From contig JAJQRF010000013.1 in assembly GCA_021228405.1 (NCBI GenBank), positions 11,903 through 75,902 on the forward strand: DNA of 64,000 bases. The letters are read 5' to 3'. The translations under genes and the position numbers were made by a program. The stretch comes from Pyrinomonadaceae bacterium (GTDB lineage Bacteria; Acidobacteriota; Blastocatellia; Pyrinomonadales; Pyrinomonadaceae). This document shows positions 1-13,682 of the stretch, piece by piece (the stretch's first letter is position 1; every line of letters starts with the position of its first letter). Under the pieces are notes generated by a model. It saw nothing but the letters and a program-made list of their open reading frames with translations, was not told the DNA's origin and ran no database searches.

Positions 1-30
1 GTTTCAATTCCAGATTGGTTCAATTAAAAG
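1..30 (-). CRISPR. Leader-proximal CRISPR repeat; array continues left of window
   Basis: Read on the minus strand this 30-base unit begins CTTTTAATTGAACC and ends GGAATTGAAAC. The ATTGAAAC end is the usual 5' handle of crRNAs in type I-A/I-B systems. It lies directly beyond cas1 and a leader-like region, with handle orientation the same as the cas operon. Only one copy is in the window, so it is called a repeat from its ending, length and position, not from visible repetition. The array and its spacers would lie at lower coordinates outside the window. Confidence 0.8.
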
Positions 31-5371: not shown

Positions 5372-6520
5372 TTAACCGACTTTTTCAAGTTCGGCGGTTA
5401 ATTGGTTGACTGCTTCAATAGGACTCGACAAACGCACAATATCGCTTTTTTCTTGAGCAAAAGACTGCAAGTCGGTTTCATTAGTCGGATGTAAATAACC
5501 TTTTCTAATTCCGATAAACACGTGCGTTGTCAAACGGTTTCGATAGTCGTTGATAATATCTTTAAGCGCATCGAGTTTAATGACAGGCTGACTTTCTTTT
5601 TCTTCAAACAAATCATTAAAGATCAGATTCCCACAATTCAATCCGGCGACAACAATCGCTTTTGGCGTTACGTCCGTTCCAAATTGCGCCTGCTTCGCGC
5701 CGCCGCGCAAAACCGCTAAAGCTTTCAAAATCATCGTTGCCCGTTCGCGCCGTTTGTTATCGGTTATTTCATAAATTCCCGTTTCAGTTTCACGAATCGT
5801 GCCGTCAGCCGCGTATTGTTTGACAAAATTCTCATCAAGTTCGATGCGGTCGCCATCATTTCGGAAAACGCCCAAGCGCGAATAGTTTAAGCCGAAGATT
5901 GCCTGTAACTGCGTGTTATAAAATTTTGTTTTATACGGCAAAGGCGAACCTTCTTTAAGATGAACAAATCCCTCGTCATCGCTAATCGTCGCGGCTTTGC
6001 GGATTGACTTCAGAATCGAAGAACCAAACGGCGACGGACGCATTACGGCTTTTGTTTTTTCGGTTTTCGGTTTCGTTTTTGTTTCTTTGTTTTCGTCTTC
6101 CCGTTCGGCTAATTCAAGCATTTCATCTTCAGTCAAAGTTTCAGGTATTTCAGTTTCCTTACCTTGACCTTTGGCGGCTCGCATATAACCGAAAATATCG
6201 TCTTCGGCAAATTCAACCGGATTCATTTCCGTTCCGATTTTATTAGTTGTTCCTTTCGCGCTTTTGTCCAACGCTTTTAATTCAGTTCCCGGTTCGTTCG
6301 GATTTTCTTCTTGAAAAGTCATCCGTAGCCAACGCCGCCAAGCCTGAGCCGATACATATGGAACGCGAATTCCTCTGCCGTTTTTGTCATAATCCAAAAA
6401 AGTTTTCGGAATCACCGCGTTTCTATCTTCGCCCGTATCAAGTCCCGCACCGTTCAAAAACGCGCCTTCGGCTTGAATTAAAAATGTTCCTGCAATATGT
6501 GTTAATTTATTTTTGCTCAT
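5372..6520 (-). CDS. cas7: Cas7 Cascade backbone (Cst2/DevR family)
   Basis: Cas7 polymerises along the crRNA spacer to form the Cascade backbone. The N-terminus THIAGTFLIQAEGAFLNGAGLDTGEDRNAVIPKTF and the RVPYVSAQAWRRWLR segment are typical of the Cst2/DevR type of Cas7. A low-complexity acidic and lysine-rich stretch (about residues 125-160, KETEIPETLTEDEM to KTKPKTEKTK) looks like an inserted loop. The open frame begins at a TTG at 6532, but the ATG at 6520 has AAGGAA just upstream, so 382 residues is the better call. The gene is preceded by a 343-base non-coding region that separates it from cas8. Confidence 0.93.
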   Translation of the reverse strand: MSKNKLTHIAGTFLIQAEGAFLNGAGLDTGEDRNAVIPKTFLDYDKNGRGIRVPYVSAQAWRRWLRMTFQEENPNEPGTELKALDKSAKGTTNKIGTEMNPVEFAEDDIFGYMRAAKGQGKETEIPETLTEDEMLELAEREDENKETKTKPKTEKTKAVMRPSPFGSSILKSIRKAATISDDEGFVHLKEGSPLPYKTKFYNTQLQAIFGLNYSRLGVFRNDGDRIELDENFVKQYAADGTIRETETGIYEITDNKRRERATMILKALAVLRGGAKQAQFGTDVTPKAIVVAGLNCGNLIFNDLFEEKESQPVIKLDALKDIINDYRNRLTTHVFIGIRKGYLHPTNETDLQSFAQEKSDIVRLSSPIEAVNQLTAELEKVG

Positions 6521-6557
6521 AATTTCCTTCAAAAATGTTTAGAAATATCTGTTAAAT

Positions 6558-6585
6558 TTGTCTGAGTAGAATCTGAGCTTATAAT
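6558..6585 (+). promoter_or_regulatory. Sigma-70-like promoter for antisense RNA
   Basis: TTGTCT (6558-6563), a 16-base spacer and a perfect TATAAT (6580-6585) face away from cas7 on the plus strand. The predicted start is near 6592, the first base of a structured RNA. The bases just upstream and over the -35 (6542-6560) resemble the pseudo-spacer of the minus-strand crRNA-like element. Confidence 0.6.
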
Positions 6586-6591
6586 AAATAA

Positions 6592-6710
6592 GGCGGCGAG
6601 GGCTAAGTCTTTTTCAACTTAGCGGAGACGGTTGAAAGCCATCTTTGATACCTCGCCATAAACGGAATGCGACGAGTAAAGGGCTTCCAAATCCATCTCG
6701 TCGTTTTTTT
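6592..6710 (+). ncRNA. Candidate structured small RNA antisense to cas8-cas7 junction
   Basis: An RNA of about 119 bases is predicted between a consensus promoter and a terminator. GGCGAGG (6595-6601) pairs with CCTCGCC (6651-6657) and closes a junction. The junction contains a hairpin GCTAAGT/ACTTAGC (6602-6608 with 6617-6623) and a smaller GACGG...CCATC stem. A second domain is the terminator stem. It lies opposite the message that joins cas8 to cas7. A short frame starts ATG CGA CGA at 6667, inside the terminator stem. I do not recognise the RNA as a known riboswitch. Its position resembles creT genes, but function is inference. Confidence 0.5.
6670..6710 (+). terminator. Rho-independent terminator of the antisense RNA
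   Basis: CGACGAG (6670-6676) pairs with CTCGTCG (6697-6703), followed at once by seven T (6704-6710). The loop is 20 bases, longer than usual. The T-run is on the plus strand only, so minus-strand cas transcription should not be stopped here. Confidence 0.65.
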
Positions 6711-6724
6711 ATTGATTTTAAGAA

Positions 6725-6831
6725 AAGAGTGCTGGTTCAATTAATTTTCAAGATTAACCAGATATTTCAATACCGTTGCACTCTCTTCACAAAATCTCAT
6801 TGCCTCAATCAATATTAATCAGATAGGCAAT
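6725..6831 (-). ncRNA. Candidate crRNA-like (CreA-type) RNA with two degenerate repeat units
   Basis: Read on the minus strand, GGTATTGAAAT (6764-6774) matches the end of the CRISPR repeat. After a 19-base pseudo-spacer (6745-6763), TTAATTGAACCA (6733-6744) matches the start of the repeat exactly for 12 bases. This is the layout of a mature crRNA. A second diverged copy of handle plus pseudo-spacer lies upstream (6809-6835); its 17-base core differs from the first (6748-6764) at two positions. An outer stem AGAGTGC/GCACTCT (6725-6731 with 6779-6785) followed by a T-rich tail may end the RNA. A good minus-strand promoter lies directly upstream. The role as an antitoxin-like guide is inferred. 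Confidence 0.5.
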
Positions 6832-6837
6832 AACGAG

Positions 6838-6867
6838 ATTCTACAAAGTATTTTTTTAGTTAGTCAA
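6838..6867 (-). promoter_or_regulatory. Sigma-70-like promoter overlapping the cas8 stop
   Basis: On the minus strand TTGACT (6862-6867), an 18-base spacer and TAGAAT (6838-6843) each match the consensus in five of six positions. The -35 overlaps the cas8 stop codon. Transcription would start near 6831. It could serve the crRNA-like element, the downstream cas7-cas5-cas3-cas4-cas1 genes, or both. Confidence 0.55.
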
Positions 6868-8732
6868 CTCAATTCATTACTTTTCTCCCGATAAAGATTT
6901 CCTAATTCCAATCTAAATTGAAACAGCAATTCGCCAACCGCTAAATTTCCCCATTCATCCCGGCAAAAAGTATCCCAATCCTCATTTGAGTAACCTTCTT
7001 TAAATTCACTCAAACCGCCAAACCATTTTCGTAAATCAGCAACGGTCATTTTTCCTCTCGAAAAACCGTTTATAATAACTTTTTTAATCCATTCAAGACC
7101 TTTTTGTTTGTCAACTTTGCTGTGTTCTGCAAATTTCCATTCAAAAACATCCTTCGCAAATTCTTTTACTTTCGGATTTGTGAACATTACTATTTCTTCT
7201 CCTGATAAATTGCTTTCTAAAATTTTTTCCTCGTCAAAATTCAACGTGCCGTTTTCAGCGTGATGAAAATAAAACCAAAATAAATCCCAACCCTTATTTG
7301 TACGCCGAATTGCTTCACCTTTAGGCGTTTCGTTTGGTTCATATGGTTTCCAAATTTCCAAAGCACGTTCAATTGTTAAATTTTCGATGCTTTGTAAATT
7401 CGCTACCGGAAAAAGTGCGACATAATTATCGAGTTTTATTTTTCCTTCTTCGGCAAATTCGATCAGCATTTTTCGCAAGCCGACGCGAATTTTAGGGTCT
7501 TTCACCAAGCGCGGATTTTCCTTCAAAATTTGTTCGTAAAACTTTTTGCGGTTCTTGTCATTTTCAGCTTCGCTTTGAAGTTTTTCGTGAGCCAACTTTG
7601 CAAAAAGTTTCGCGCTGTCGAGCGTAAACTGCGTTCGCTTCAAAACTTTTGTTTGATAAAGGTCAAACAATCCAACCGTTGCAATTTGTGATTTTGCTTC
7701 GCCTTTTTTCGCTTTTTGAGGATAAAAACCTAAATATTCTCTCTGCTGTTCAATCGCTGACAACAGATGTGTTGCGGGCTTTTTCGGGTCTTCGCGCTGT
7801 AAGATTTTTTCGAGTTCGGTTTTGTGCTTCAAGCCGTCCCAAAAGAATTGGAGCGAAGGATTCGGAATTTCAAAAAAATCACTGTCAGCACTTTGTCCGG
7901 CATTGCTGAATGTCCAAATGTTAAGCGTTACCGTTTCCGGCAAGTTGTTTCGTTTTCTTTGATAATTAAATTGATTGATCGTTTCAAACAAAAGCTGTCC
8001 TAAAGATTTCTTCGATTTTCCGCTTTTGGCTTCATCACTTGAAAATGAAATTGATAATTTTTCATTGACCGGAGTTGTGTCCAGTTGAGAACGATTCCGT
8101 TCATAAATACTCTGAGTTAAATCCTGCGTGAGAATTGGCTCGGTAAATTGAAAACAAGCTAATCCACGATTGAAAACGCCCGTTCCGAGCGGCAACCAAT
8201 GAACCGCCAATAAACAAAGCGGACAAATTTTCGGCGCACGACTCGCCGCCGGTAATGCTTGCGCGTCGTTCCCGATACTTCCCGCCAACGGAAAATAATC
8301 GCGTCCGATTGAATCTAAATTCTGCGTCGCTTTTCGCTCACCACACGATTCACACAAAATTTCATTACCAGAAAGTTCGCTTTCTTCATTTTTAATTAGT
8401 TCGCTACTTAGTTCTTGCAACTTTGCGACATAGTTTTGCCAACCCGAATCTATTTCATCGAGTAAACCGTAGTTCTTTGACTTGTTCATCGCTTTATTAT
8501 TGCTAGGATTAACTAAAGCAGAGTTTGTGCCGACAACCATAAAAAAAGATTTAAGCTGCCGATTCGCCCGCGCTAACCATTTCGCAAAACCGTCTTTGCT
8601 TTCAAATGCCTTTTTGACATCTTCAACTTGCAAAACCTCTTTCGGCTCGCTGCCTAATTCTCTGGCAAGATGCGCTTTAATTGTGAAAATTCCGGTATCT
8701 ACAAACGGATTTCCCGTTAAATTTATTTCCAT
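6864..8732 (-). CDS. cas8: Cas8 large Cascade subunit (Cst1, CXXC-CXXC type)
   Basis: The large subunit of type I-B Cascade recognises the PAM and stabilises the R-loop. Two CXXC pairs, CESC at 127-130 and CPLC at 170-173, are the zinc-binding signature of the Cst1 (CXXC_CXXC) group. The segment after the second pair (LLAVHWLPLGTGVFNRGLACFQF) also fits that family. Length of 622 residues is typical. It starts 6 bases after the cas6 stop and its stop overlaps an internal promoter. Of the Cascade genes it is the only one separated from its partners by a long non-coding gap. Confidence 0.88.
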   Translation of the reverse strand: MEINLTGNPFVDTGIFTIKAHLARELGSEPKEVLQVEDVKKAFESKDGFAKWLARANRQLKSFFMVVGTNSALVNPSNNKAMNKSKNYGLLDEIDSGWQNYVAKLQELSSELIKNEESELSGNEILCESCGERKATQNLDSIGRDYFPLAGSIGNDAQALPAASRAPKICPLCLLAVHWLPLGTGVFNRGLACFQFTEPILTQDLTQSIYERNRSQLDTTPVNEKLSISFSSDEAKSGKSKKSLGQLLFETINQFNYQRKRNNLPETVTLNIWTFSNAGQSADSDFFEIPNPSLQFFWDGLKHKTELEKILQREDPKKPATHLLSAIEQQREYLGFYPQKAKKGEAKSQIATVGLFDLYQTKVLKRTQFTLDSAKLFAKLAHEKLQSEAENDKNRKKFYEQILKENPRLVKDPKIRVGLRKMLIEFAEEGKIKLDNYVALFPVANLQSIENLTIERALEIWKPYEPNETPKGEAIRRTNKGWDLFWFYFHHAENGTLNFDEEKILESNLSGEEIVMFTNPKVKEFAKDVFEWKFAEHSKVDKQKGLEWIKKVIINGFSRGKMTVADLRKWFGGLSEFKEGYSNEDWDTFCRDEWGNLAVGELLFQFRLELGNLYREKSNELS

Positions 8733-9531: not shown

Positions 9532-10536
9532 CTAAAAACTCTTCAAACTTTCTATTAAAATCCGGTTTATATTTTCATGGACTTCTTTCGGTGAGATAAC
9601 TTCGATGTCGGGAAGCCAGCCGAGTATGAATCTTTCCAAGCCGCGACCGCTTGCGACCGTCATTTCGATGACGATGGTTTCGGGCGATGCGCCGCGTTTA
9701 TGTTTGCGTTCGATTATTTTTTGCGACGGATGAAAACTGCGTTCGGCAAAGATGCGCGCTGTGATGCCTTTTGCCTTCAGTCGCACGGTGACGGGTTTGC
9801 CGTGAATTCCGTTAAAACAATTGTCGCGTAAATAACTGCTAAGATCGAAATCTGCGGGGCGGATAAAATTTTCGTTCGTTTCGATCAAATTGGAAATGCG
9901 TTCGACCGAGAAAACGCGAATTTCGCCGTGGGTCGCGTCGAAAGCGATCAGTTTGAGCGTTGCGCCGTCCGGGTCGAAATAAACGCTGTATGGCGCGATC
10001 CTGCGTGAAGAATCACGGTCACGGTTTAAGGAATGATAACGGATTTGGATAACTTTCAGTCGGACGGCGGCGAAAGCAAGCCGGTCGATCACGGCGGCGT
10101 GGGCGGAAAAGTTCTTCGCCGGGATGATCGCCGAGCCGTAAACCTTGGAAAGTGCGTCGAGATTGGCTTTAACCGAACGCGGAAGTGATGACCGGACCTT
10201 GCCGATCAGTGAATTTGCCTGCGCTGAATAAAATGAGTTTCCGGCAGTAATGCCGATACCGGCAATCGCTTCCTGAGCAAGCAGCAGCGTTGCCAGTTCT
10301 TCGATCTCGATCTGCGGAAAGTCAAATTTGAAATCGTCGGAGAATTTATAAAAAACCTCTCTGCCGCGTTTTTCTTCGATGATCGGATATTCGAGTCCGA
10401 GTGCGTCGAGATCGCGGCAGATGGTTTTATGATTGACCCCGAACTCACGCGCCAGTTCCTGCCGCGAATGCGCCCGCCGGATGAGTTTGAAAAGAATTCT
10501 GATGAGCCGCTCGGTGAGAGCCTGACGATAACTCAT
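9532..10536 (-). CDS. WYL-domain transcriptional regulator of the cas locus
   Basis: A 334-residue DNA-binding regulator. The N-terminal winged helix-turn-helix (about 20-48, RRAHSRQELAREFGVNHKTICRDLDALG) is followed by a WYL domain (about 165-235). The WYL domain has the RRIAPYSVYFDPDGATLKLIAFD strand, which in this family senses a ligand such as nucleic acid or nucleotide. A C-terminal WCX-like part follows. WYL proteins next to cas operons commonly regulate them. Here it sits between cas6 and the divergent cas2, so it could control both directions. Palindromes in the gap to cas2 are candidate operators. Confidence 0.88.
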   Translation of the reverse strand: MSYRQALTERLIRILFKLIRRAHSRQELAREFGVNHKTICRDLDALGLEYPIIEEKRGREVFYKFSDDFKFDFPQIEIEELATLLLAQEAIAGIGITAGNSFYSAQANSLIGKVRSSLPRSVKANLDALSKVYGSAIIPAKNFSAHAAVIDRLAFAAVRLKVIQIRYHSLNRDRDSSRRIAPYSVYFDPDGATLKLIAFDATHGEIRVFSVERISNLIETNENFIRPADFDLSSYLRDNCFNGIHGKPVTVRLKAKGITARIFAERSFHPSQKIIERKHKRGASPETIVIEMTVASGRGLERFILGWLPDIEVISPKEVHENINRILIESLKSF

Positions 10537-10688: not shown

Positions 10689-10952
10689 ATGTATGTATTG
10701 ATCGTTTACGATGTGTCGGTCGAGCGCGTGAGCAAAGTTCATAAATTTCTCAAACAGTTTCTGCACTGGCGGCAAAACTCGGTTTTTGAAGGTGAATTGA
10801 CCGACGCACAGATCGAAAAGGTAAGGAACGGTCTGAAAAATATCATTGATGCCGAAGCCGATTCGATCCTGTTTTATATTGCCCGCGACGAAAAATGGCT
10901 CAAGCGTGAGCATTTGGGGAAAGACGGCAAGTCTGTGACAAATCTGATATGA
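10689..10952 (+). CDS. cas2: Cas2 adaptation protein
   Basis: Cas2 forms the dimeric core of the Cas1-Cas2 spacer integrase. The 87-residue product has the ferredoxin-like start MYVLIVYDVSVERVSKVHKFL with the conserved Asp8. The WRQNSVFEGELTDAQ segment is characteristic of Cas2 from I-B and related systems. Oddly it is not next to cas1: it is about 9.2 kb away, beyond the entire operon and the WYL gene, and on the opposite strand. It must have its own promoter. Confidence 0.95.
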   Translation: MYVLIVYDVSVERVSKVHKFLKQFLHWRQNSVFEGELTDAQIEKVRNGLKNIIDAEADSILFYIARDEKWLKREHLGKDGKSVTNLI

Positions 10953-12494: not shown

Positions 12495-13682
12495 CTAAAA
12501 TTCATTCGACGCAACGGCGGGATTGCCGAAAACTTTTTCGACGATGACTTTTTGACCGGATTGATGCCAAGTCTGTCGAATGTTGCTTCGCAGACTTTCA
12601 AGGGCATTATCATTCGATTTATTTAACATTTCGGCGGTAAACTGCTTCAATTTCGATTGTTGGTTTTCGAGAATGAAAATCATTCTTTCGACCGCCGCTT
12701 CGATCGGCTGTTCGAGATTCTCAAAGTCATCGAGCGACGTGGGAAAAGCCAGTTTTTCGTTAAAACGGCTAAATGCCATCGTCAGAGATTCGCCAATTTG
12801 CTGGCGATAAATCTCGCTCAAGACAGCTTGGCTGTCGTTTTGAGGAAGCAGAAAACCAAGCGGGGTTTTCAGGGCGACGGCTTCGAGTGTTGTCGTGATG
12901 CCGGGTGCGGTCAGTAAAAAACGCGACTCGGCGAGCTTTTGTAAAAATTCCGGCTTCGGTAGAAATCCGATTTTTACAGATGACCGCGAAAACCGCATTT
13001 TTAATTGTTCAGCTAAAGTTTGGTTGACACAGATTTCGATTTCTTCAAACTTCTCCGACGCTTCATCGTCTATTATTTTTGAGAGTGTGGCAACGTATAT
13101 TTCATAAATTTTTGAATTCACATATTGATTTGAACAACCTGAAAAATTGACGAGCAGGCGATTTTTCCGCTCGTTTACCGGTATCAGGGAATAATCGTGC
13201 TTGGGCAGTATGCCGATTGGGGGAACTGAGATTATCCGAAGTGTTTCACTCCATTTTTCGATGCGCGCGGGTGTGGCGAGATAATCCTGCACAAAATAAA
13301 TTTCCGCATTTTCCGCTCCTCTGGGCGGCTCGCGCCACATCCACACTAGAGAATCGACGAAATAAAGACTGCCGAAACTTTTTCGCCAGAGCGGGAGCAA
13401 AGGTAAATTCAGCACGGAAAAAACGGCATCGTAATTTTTCAGTTGCGGAATGATTTTTTTGACTTGAGCGGAATCGTCAACTTCCGCCTCGATCAGCAAA
13501 TCAAATGCTTTTGAAAGCTCGGCAAATCGGAGGGTGAATCGGTCGCCGAAAAAATGCGTTTCCATCTGCGGCAATCGGCGTTTGATTTCTCCGGCAATCG
13601 CCGCGGCTTTTGAAACCGGACCGAAACCGAAGCTTGAAGACACAAAGGCGCATTTCGTTTTTTGAAAATCTCCGACAGTCAT
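12495..13682 (-). CDS. GT-B fold glycosyltransferase-like protein
   Basis: A 395-residue cytosolic protein. The N-terminal segment CAFVSSSFGFGPVSKAAAIAGEIKRR is the glycine-rich acceptor-domain start of GT-B enzymes, and the C-terminal half has a donor-binding-like region (FLLTAPGITTTLEAVALKTPLGFLLPQNDSQ). It vaguely resembles enzymes that transfer sugars to nucleosides, but the substrate cannot be named. It lies 57 bases downstream of another GT-B gene and probably shares its message. The end converges on the integrase. Confidence 0.6.
   Translation of the reverse strand: MTVGDFQKTKCAFVSSSFGFGPVSKAAAIAGEIKRRLPQMETHFFGDRFTLRFAELSKAFDLLIEAEVDDSAQVKKIIPQLKNYDAVFSVLNLPLLPLWRKSFGSLYFVDSLVWMWREPPRGAENAEIYFVQDYLATPARIEKWSETLRIISVPPIGILPKHDYSLIPVNERKNRLLVNFSGCSNQYVNSKIYEIYVATLSKIIDDEASEKFEEIEICVNQTLAEQLKMRFSRSSVKIGFLPKPEFLQKLAESRFLLTAPGITTTLEAVALKTPLGFLLPQNDSQAVLSEIYRQQIGESLTMAFSRFNEKLAFPTSLDDFENLEQPIEAAVERMIFILENQQSKLKQFTAEMLNKSNDNALESLRSNIRQTWHQSGQKVIVEKVFGNPAVASNEF

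What the first reader, a model, noticed from the sequence alone, without database searches (positions are those of the whole stretch)
6538..6867. Degenerate mini-CRISPR and facing RNA gene inside the cas operon: candidate CreTA-type RNA pair
Seen: between cas8 and cas7 the minus strand carries a repeat-end match (GGTATTGAAAT), a 19-base pseudo-spacer and a 12-base exact match to the repeat start (TTAATTGAACCA), i.e. the outline of a mature crRNA. It sits behind a near-consensus promoter that overlaps the cas8 stop. A second diverged unit (6809-6835) repeats handle and pseudo-spacer. The first pseudo-spacer plus the last handle bases match 15 of 19 positions at 6542-6560, next to and over the -35 of a plus-strand promoter for a small terminated RNA. 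Known: in CreTA modules a crRNA-like RNA guides Cascade to repress a toxic RNA promoter within cas operons. Inferred: this is such a guard module, with no sequence relation that I recognise. Caveat: the match runs into the handle, the PAM-side bases are AAT, and seed pairing is only five continuous bases.
Basis: partly seen in the sequence, partly recalled or inferred. Interest (0 to 1): 0.87.

Follow-up and report, generated by a model that had tools for sequence, protein, structure and literature searches.

The report
CRISPR-guarded tRNA-like gene module
Inside a bacterial CRISPR operon sits a tiny decayed CRISPR that appears to aim the CRISPR machinery at its own promoter, next to a tRNA-like gene; in relatives that gene is a tRNA with a mismatched anticodon, possibly a poison that CRISPR keeps silent.

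Summary
The "second diverged unit" is the protospacer. On the minus strand, CCT|ATCTGATTAAT lies 10 nt beyond the -10 of the promoter at the cas8 stop and matches the pseudo-spacer at seed positions 1-5 and 7-11 (10/10). Three other genomes of the same family (G001, G012, G109) carry the same arrangement: promoter match, seed match of 9, 10 and 10 of 10, degenerate repeat(s), A-run plus hairpin, tRNA-like element. The PAMs, CCT and CCA, CCT, CCG, all fit CCN. Random 12-mers reach 9/10 with a CC flank in 0.2% of trials or fewer per locus. In G001 and G012 the last element is an intact tRNA with a tRNA-Leu-like body but an Arg (UCU) or Glu (CUC) anticodon; in G109 a shortened tRNA-like with alanine's G3:U70; in the window a 63-nt tRNA-shaped RNA that ARAGORN and Rfam do not recognise. 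My reading: a CreTA-type guard in which Cascade represses a (mis-charging) tRNA-like toxin. The main rival is CreR-type autorepression of cas genes. The system's PAM, transcription and toxicity are inferred, not shown.

The parts
6864..8732 (-). cas8 (Cas8b1/Cst1), upstream gene
   Evidence: NCBIfam TIGR01908
6838..6867 (-). promoter match: -35 TTGACT 6862-6867, -10 TAGAAT 6838-6843, overlapping the cas8 stop
   Evidence: 10 of 12 consensus; the relatives have 11/12 (L014), 9/12 (L179) and 10/12 (L190) just before the target
6825..6827 (-). putative PAM CCT
   Evidence: the relatives have CCA, CCT, CCG
   Evidence: null
6764..6793 (-). degenerate repeat psiR1; putative 8-nt 5' handle ATTGAAAT at 6764-6771
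6748..6763 (-). pseudo-spacer psiS ATCTGGTTAATCTTGA
6718..6747 (-). degenerate repeat psiR2; exact 12-mer TTAATTGAACCA at 6733-6744
6722..6788 (-). inverted repeat (6778-6788 with 6722-6732) closing the guide RNA into a stem-loop
   Evidence: predicted fold; coordinates; not compared among relatives
6670..6710 (.). A-run plus hairpin; terminator-like on the plus strand; a similar feature lies between guide and tRNA-like in the other three loci
   Evidence: read by eye; the tool reports it only in L190; coordinates
6595..6657 (-). tRNA-like three-arm RNA (GGCGAGG...CCTCGCC): 7-bp acceptor-like stem, 6-bp arm with loop CUUUCAA (6632-6638), arm stacked on the acceptor, no D arm; G at the position of base 73 (6594)
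   Evidence: fold z -6.0 for the 64-nt piece; ARAGORN and Rfam negative; same place as the tRNA of L014
5372..6532 (-). cas7 (Cst2), downstream gene
   Evidence: NCBIfam TIGR02585
   Evidence: not clearly conserved
1..30 (-). first repeat of the genomic CRISPR array, which continues to the left of the window

Best explanation
The cas8-cas7 gap holds a CreTA-type guard module. A promoter at the cas8 stop drives a minimal, decayed CRISPR (creA-like). Its crRNA-like RNA would be cut by Cas6 and loaded into Cascade, which then binds a CCN-flanked, partly matching site just downstream of the same promoter and represses it. Downstream on the same strand lies a tRNA-like RNA gene, which I take to be the toxin. 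In relatives it is a tRNA with a Leu-like body and an Arg or Glu anticodon, or a shortened tRNA-like with the alanine signature. Such RNAs could be charged by a synthetase that does not read the anticodon and would put the wrong amino acid at Arg, Glu or Trp codons. Loss of Cascade would derepress it and harm the cell, making CRISPR addictive. Shown by sequence: promoter match, degenerate repeats, CC-flanked seed match and tRNA-like element, together in four loci. Inferred: transcription, Cas6 processing, PAM recognition and Cascade binding, read-through of the hairpin into the tRNA-like gene, charging, toxicity.
For: Four loci share the anatomy. The best seed match within 350 nt of the guide, with no PAM condition, is 10, 9, 10, 10 of 10 and CC-flanked in 4 of 4 (window, L014, L190, L179); it starts 49-61 nt upstream of psiS. 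A scan of 19 stretches with one rule gave 6 hits, 4 of them these modules. Nulls: >=9/10 with a CC flank in 7 of 3813, 7 of 3881, 2 of 3676, 5 of 3877 random 12-mers; 10/10 in 0, 1, 0, 0 (window, L014, L190, L179). Degenerate repeats exceed Markov sequences. Pairing at 1-5 and 7-11 and repression of its own operon promoter are reported for H. hubeiense CreA (PMC8501985, results parts 1-2 of 3). tRNA-like element in four of four: intact tRNAs in L014 and L179 (62.5 and 58.5 bits) with TCT and CTC anticodons, closest ordinary isotype among 24 G001 tRNAs compared being Leu (60 identities each); a 70-nt tRNA-like in L190. ARAGORN finds no tRNA in 11 other stretches fetched for cas genes or arrays, some of them partial. 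Bacterial identity sets without anticodon bases: Leu, Ala, Ser (PMC9976931 Table 1).
Against: No RNA or phenotype data. The window's own element is not called a tRNA by ARAGORN or Rfam. L014's tRNA also has A20, C35 and U36, which ArgRS uses (Table 1; positions assigned by eye), so it may be charged correctly. The hairpin between guide and tRNA-like could end the sense transcript. The same promoter may also drive cas genes, which fits CreR. CCN is not confirmed as PAM: one G001 spacer matches a phage methylase gene (32 of 36, and 86% in another phage), but the flanks are CAA and CGA; other matches were partial or, for a perfect self-match, flanked by AGC. Shuffled letters of L179's T-rich pseudo-spacer reach 9/10 in 21 of 2000 trials (0-3 of 2000 in the others; none reaches 10/10). 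Two 9/10 background hits arose in the scan.
Confidence: 0.5

Rival explanations
1. CreR-type autorepression: the guide lets Cascade repress an internal promoter that feeds cas7-cas5-cas3-cas4-cas1, tuning Cas levels to crRNA load. The tRNA-like element is a processing signal that cuts guide from cas mRNA, or is incidental.
For: Self-targeted promoter upstream of Cascade genes in all four loci; weak or no T-run after the hairpin on the sense strand (by eye), so read-through into cas genes is plausible; CreR guides are described as crRNA-like RNAs that repress cas promoters, generally without a toxin gene (review PMC12737573, passages).
Against: Does not explain why a tRNA or tRNA-like lies in the same place in four of four modules while 11 other stretches have none, nor the foreign anticodons. 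L190 and L014 have a further promoter match between the tRNA-like element and the next cas gene.
Confidence: 0.33
2. One reading: the guide represses a plus-strand promoter (6558-6585) for a small terminated toxic RNA facing it.
For: Plus-strand promoter 10/12, hairpin with T-run at 6670-6710 (by eye), 9/10 seed match at 6547.
Against: Flank AAT equals the end of the degenerate repeat and was non-functional as a PAM in C. difficile I-B (PMC8406132); no second site of 9/10 or better in the three relatives; in L014 this strand is the antisense of a tRNA.
Confidence: 0.08
3. A decayed relic: a mini-CRISPR captured in the operon that no longer acts, beside an unrelated tRNA insertion.
For: The repeats are degenerate and the window's tRNA-like element is not a recognisable tRNA.
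Against: Seed, CC flank and promoter match are present in four loci although psiS sequences and positions in the operon differ, which decay would erase.
Confidence: 0.09

Closest known systems
CreTA (type VIII toxin-antitoxin RNA pair), Haloarcula hubeiense type
   Same: Minimal CRISPR with two divergent repeats next to a type I cas operon; seed pairing 1-5 and 7-11 to a PAM-flanked site at the promoter of its own operon (PMC8501985, results parts 1-2)
   Different: The characterised CreT RNAs carry a mini-ORF and sequester a rare tRNA, or depend on a start codon and hairpin (PMC8501985; PMC10097628 passages); here the companion is itself a tRNA or tRNA-like element and lies after the guide
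CreR (cas-regulating RNA)
   Same: crRNA-like guide aimed at a promoter of its own cas operon (PMC12737573 passages)
   Different: Generally not coupled to a toxin gene; no tRNA-like companion in the passages seen
nev-tRNAs of nematodes and other mistranslating tRNAs
   Same: tRNAs with a variable arm and a foreign anticodon; nev-tRNAs accept leucine in vitro (PMC4300185, abstract)
   Different: Eukaryotic, not linked to CRISPR, no detectable mistranslation in C. elegans

Membership tests
CreTA | one or two degenerate repeats outside the array, near cas genes | tested here: met
   window, L014, L190 two; L179 one
CreTA | pseudo-spacer partly matching a PAM-flanked promoter site | tested here: met
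   10/10 seed, CCT; CC flank in 4 of 4 loci; that CCN is this system's PAM could not be confirmed
CreTA | guide processed by Cas6 and used by Cascade to repress | not testable with these tools
   needs RNA-seq and cas mutants
CreTA | repressed gene is a toxic RNA | not testable with these tools
   tRNA-like candidate only
CreTA | mini-ORF with paired rare codons or strong start in the toxin RNA (as in characterised CreT) | tested here: inconclusive
   looked at by eye in the leaders of window and L014 only: short ORFs can be read, none with two consecutive AGA or ATA codons; L179 and L190 not examined
CreR | guide targets the promoter of its own cas operon | tested here: inconclusive
   target just beyond the internal promoter before cas7; whether that promoter feeds cas7 is unknown
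CreR | no toxin gene attached | tested here: inconclusive
   tRNA-like element in four of four modules, function unknown
mischarging tRNA (anticodon-blind synthetase) | body of tRNA-Leu, Ala or Ser with a foreign anticodon | tested here: inconclusive
   L014 and L179: Leu-like body. L190: A73, G2-C71, G3.U70, G4-C69 read by eye. Window: G73, C72, G2-C71, R4-Y69, G30-C40 of the Ser set by eye, but no D arm, so no C11-G24, and no normal T arm. Charging itself not tested
tRNA (window element) | recognised as tRNA | tested here: not met
   ARAGORN 0 genes in the window; Rfam no tRNA hit up to E 5 in 6480-6900

The most novel reading that the evidence does not exclude
A new class of RNA toxin: tRNA-like RNAs with leucine-, alanine- or serine-accepting bodies and foreign anticodons (Arg UCU, Glu CUC, Trp CCA, Glu UUC), kept silent by a CRISPR-derived guide. 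Losing or blocking CRISPR would then trigger genetic-code-wide mistranslation.
Probability: 0.35. Interest if true: 0.95.

Novelty: new variant of a known kind. Interest (0 to 1): 0.78.

Why it matters
If right, CRISPR addiction modules need not sequester tRNAs with mini-ORFs: they can hold a rogue tRNA in check. It would add tRNA genes to the list of toxins, bring CreTA-like modules to an acidobacterial family with type I-B and Csp-type systems, and explain 'tRNA genes' with odd anticodons inside cas operons. It also gives a search rule: a CC-flanked seed match about 50-60 nt upstream of a degenerate repeat end, followed by a tRNA-like element. Even under the CreR reading it is a self-targeting guide inside, rather than before, a cas operon.

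Tried and rejected
Plus-strand target at 6542-6560: flank AAT, no second site of 9/10 or better in the relatives.

Rfam on the window gap: one chance hit, SNORD124, E 1.9. In G109 the best Rfam hit is the tmRNA model (32.4 bits, below its cut-off of 47), but ordinary tRNAs score as high with that model, so I do not claim descent from tmRNA; G109 has a separate full tmRNA.

PAM from array spacers (44 listed from the window array, 34 from L014): blastn of the two arrays against phages and plasmids and of the window array against 118 family genomes. One L014 spacer matches a DNA methylase gene of Rhizobium phage RR1-A (32 of 36) and Pseudomonas phage PA8 (86%), flanks CAA and CGA: a conserved gene of phages of other hosts, but not CCN. 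One window spacer matches its own genome perfectly, flank AGC; two more match over 24 and 27 nt. Seven exact scans of viral contigs, with parts of six further spacers and of the methylase spacer, gave hits for two, all with 5-6 of 10 seed bases. A plasmid hit in Runella was not examined.

Other members: cas7 in 119 family, 162 class (E 1e-3) and 396 phylum genomes (E 1e-20): 3, 5 and 2 matches counting G000. cas1 in 158 class (E 1e-50) and 396 phylum genomes (E 1e-90): 14 and 8. csp1 in 396 phylum genomes: 0; G012 and G109 appear not to be in that draw, so this shows little. Of the 34 cas7 loci I measured, in 32, the distance from the preceding 100-codon frame to the match: 389 nt in L015 (the same contig as L014), 74 nt or less in the other 31. 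A 10/10 seed search over 38 loci, L015 among them, found none; it misses 9/10 modules. Where no array was at hand the scanner used a default repeat, so modules can have been missed.

tRNAs elsewhere in fetched loci: one search also found a Ser(gga) tRNA in L018 and a Pro(tgg) tRNA in L023, both on the opposite strand and far from cas7, and tRNAs on two array contigs (L180, L186).

Rare-tRNA supply: G001 has a separate ordinary tRNA-Arg(tct), and AGA is about 10 per 1000 codons in the G001 frames sampled.

Full report
Setting. The window holds a type I-B (Cst/Cas8b1) operon on the minus strand: cas6, cas8, [gap 6533-6863], cas7, cas5, cas3, cas4, cas1, then the array, whose first repeat is window 1-30 and which runs on to the left. 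The ORF at 10689-10952 on the plus strand I read as cas2 (no family search; similar stretches in relatives at 48-68% identity); it lies apart from cas1. The repeat is CTTTTAATTGAACCAATCTGGAATTGAAAC.

What is in the gap. Reading the minus strand from the cas8 stop: promoter match TTGACT-18-TAGAAT; CCT|ATCTGATTAATATTGATTG; a degenerate repeat ending GGTATTGAAAT; the pseudo-spacer ATCTGGTTAATCTTGA; a second degenerate repeat with the exact 12-mer TTAATTGAACCA; an A-run and hairpin; a three-armed RNA closed by GGCGAGG/CCTCGCC; cas7. The two repeat halves are more than chance: 1 of 5000 Markov sequences reaches their score (0 of 5000 for L014, 3 of 5000 for L190, 1 of 3000 for L179's single repeat).

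The target. I scanned the pseudo-spacer against the gap and flanks on both strands. In C. difficile type I-B, CCN was functional as a PAM and AAT, the 3' end of a repeat, was not (PMC8406132, passages). Pairing at 1-5 plus 7-11, and targeting of the operon's own promoter, are reported for H. hubeiense CreA (PMC8501985, results parts 1 and 2 of 3). I could not confirm the PAM from array spacers; two near-full matches of one G001 spacer in phage genes have flanks CAA and CGA.

Relatives. A cas7 search gave one close relative, G001 (70% identity; in another collection its contig is Acidobacteria bacterium 13_1_20CM_3_53_8, L015), with a long gap at the same place. A search with the array DNA brought in G012 and G109, whose repeat and cas4-cas1-cas2 are similar but whose effector is Csp type. 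Both carry the module: G012 between cas6 and cas5, G109 between an N-terminal cas6 remnant (69% to G001's cas6 over 77 residues) and a different cas6. Each of the four has a 9-11 of 12 promoter match just before the target. With no PAM condition, the best seed match within 350 nt of the guide is 10, 9, 10 and 10 of 10 (window, L014, L190, L179) and its flank is CCT, CCA, CCG and CCT; the only other site of 9 or more is the window's AAT site. In L179 (G012) the target is on the opposite strand. A scan of 19 stretches (the window, the three modules' loci, and 15 other stretches fetched for cas genes or similar arrays, several of them from one genome) with one rule gave six hits: these four, and two 9/10 hits elsewhere at +92 and +84. 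With random 12-mers, at least 9 of 10 with a CC flank occurs in 7 of 3813, 7 of 3881, 2 of 3676 and 5 of 3877 trials; 10 of 10 in 0, 1, 0 and 0 (window, L014, L190, L179). With shuffled pseudo-spacers the 9-of-10 counts are 2, 0, 3 and 21 of 2000, and none reaches 10.

The companion gene. In G001 the stretch between hairpin and cas7 is a tRNA with anticodon TCT; in G012 the same place before cas5 has a tRNA with anticodon CTC. Both have a long variable region and A73. Compared with 24 tRNAs of G001 and one of G000, their closest ordinary isotype is tRNA-Leu (60 identities each); the G000 tRNA, itself odd with a TAT anticodon, scores higher for L014 and second for L179. G012's own tRNAs were not compared. 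G001 has a separate ordinary tRNA-Arg(tct), so this one is extra. In G109 a 70-nt tRNA-like (ARAGORN: Trp, cca) has a complete acceptor and T arm, with A73, G2-C71, G3:U70 and G4-C69. In the window the element is 63 nt, folds well (z -6.0 for the 64-nt piece) and has a 7-nt loop CUUUCAA like an anticodon loop, but lacks a D arm and a normal T loop; ARAGORN and Rfam do not call it. ARAGORN found no tRNA in 11 other stretches fetched for cas genes or arrays, some partial; tRNAs found elsewhere in other loci are told under Tried and rejected. Leu, Ala and Ser are the bacterial families whose listed determinants (PMC9976931, Table 1 in section 6) include no anticodon base; PMC11415595 (passages) notes that anticodon changes in these tRNAs can therefore cause mis-incorporation. 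A caution: the G001 tRNA also carries A20, C35 and U36, which ArgRS uses, so it could be charged with arginine.

Mechanism. Most likely Cascade loaded with the decayed-CRISPR RNA sits just downstream of the promoter and represses guide and tRNA-like together; loss of Cascade would release the tRNA-like RNA, which I propose is harmful by mischarging or by occupying a synthetase. The guide and self-targeting part I hold at about 0.85; the toxin role at about 0.5. The main rival is CreR-type autorepression of the downstream cas genes (PMC12737573, passages); the two could be combined.

Literature. Searches of the held library for CreTA, CreR, CreT with tRNA and mistranslation, tRNA-like with CreA, tRNA gene with cas operon, toxic or mistranslating tRNA with toxin-antitoxin, and mini-CRISPR showed, among the papers listed (at most 20 of up to 699 per search), none whose title or shown abstract describes a tRNA as CreT. 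Of PMC9458426 I read one results section. The main report on CreR and the first CreTA paper are known to me from memory and were not read.

Noticed in passing
L179 about 12803-12900: G012 has a second mini-CRISPR of two imperfect repeats around one spacer in the cas3-cas4 gap; the scan reported no CC-flanked self-target within 200 nt.
   Followed up: partly
L158 565-650 (-), G000:C7 about 1135065-1135149: The window's own genome has another long-variable-arm tRNA, close to the L014 tRNA (65 identities), with a TAT (Ile) anticodon; I saw no degenerate repeat near it by eye.
   Followed up: partly
G000:C19:317760-317810 (L176): One spacer of the genomic array matches its own genome perfectly over 37 nt, with 5' flank AGC, which is not CCN.
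   Followed up: partly
L009 array, spacers W0 and W2: Two spacers match the same sequence on opposite strands.
   Followed up: no
window 10689-10952 (+): cas2-like ORF, divergent from and far from cas1, beyond the regulator gene at 9532-10536.
   Followed up: no
L190 2705-2935 (-): N-terminal remnant of a G001-type cas6 just upstream of the module in G109, before a different, full cas6: a sign of effector swapping.
   Followed up: partly
L165 (G015:C254:11253-11285): Another genome of the family has a 33-nt stretch 94% like the window's repeat plus adjoining bases; array or lone repeat not examined.
   Followed up: no
L146 (G001:C9:132300-134400): Cluster of 17 tRNA genes, several of unusual length for their isotype.
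   Followed up: no
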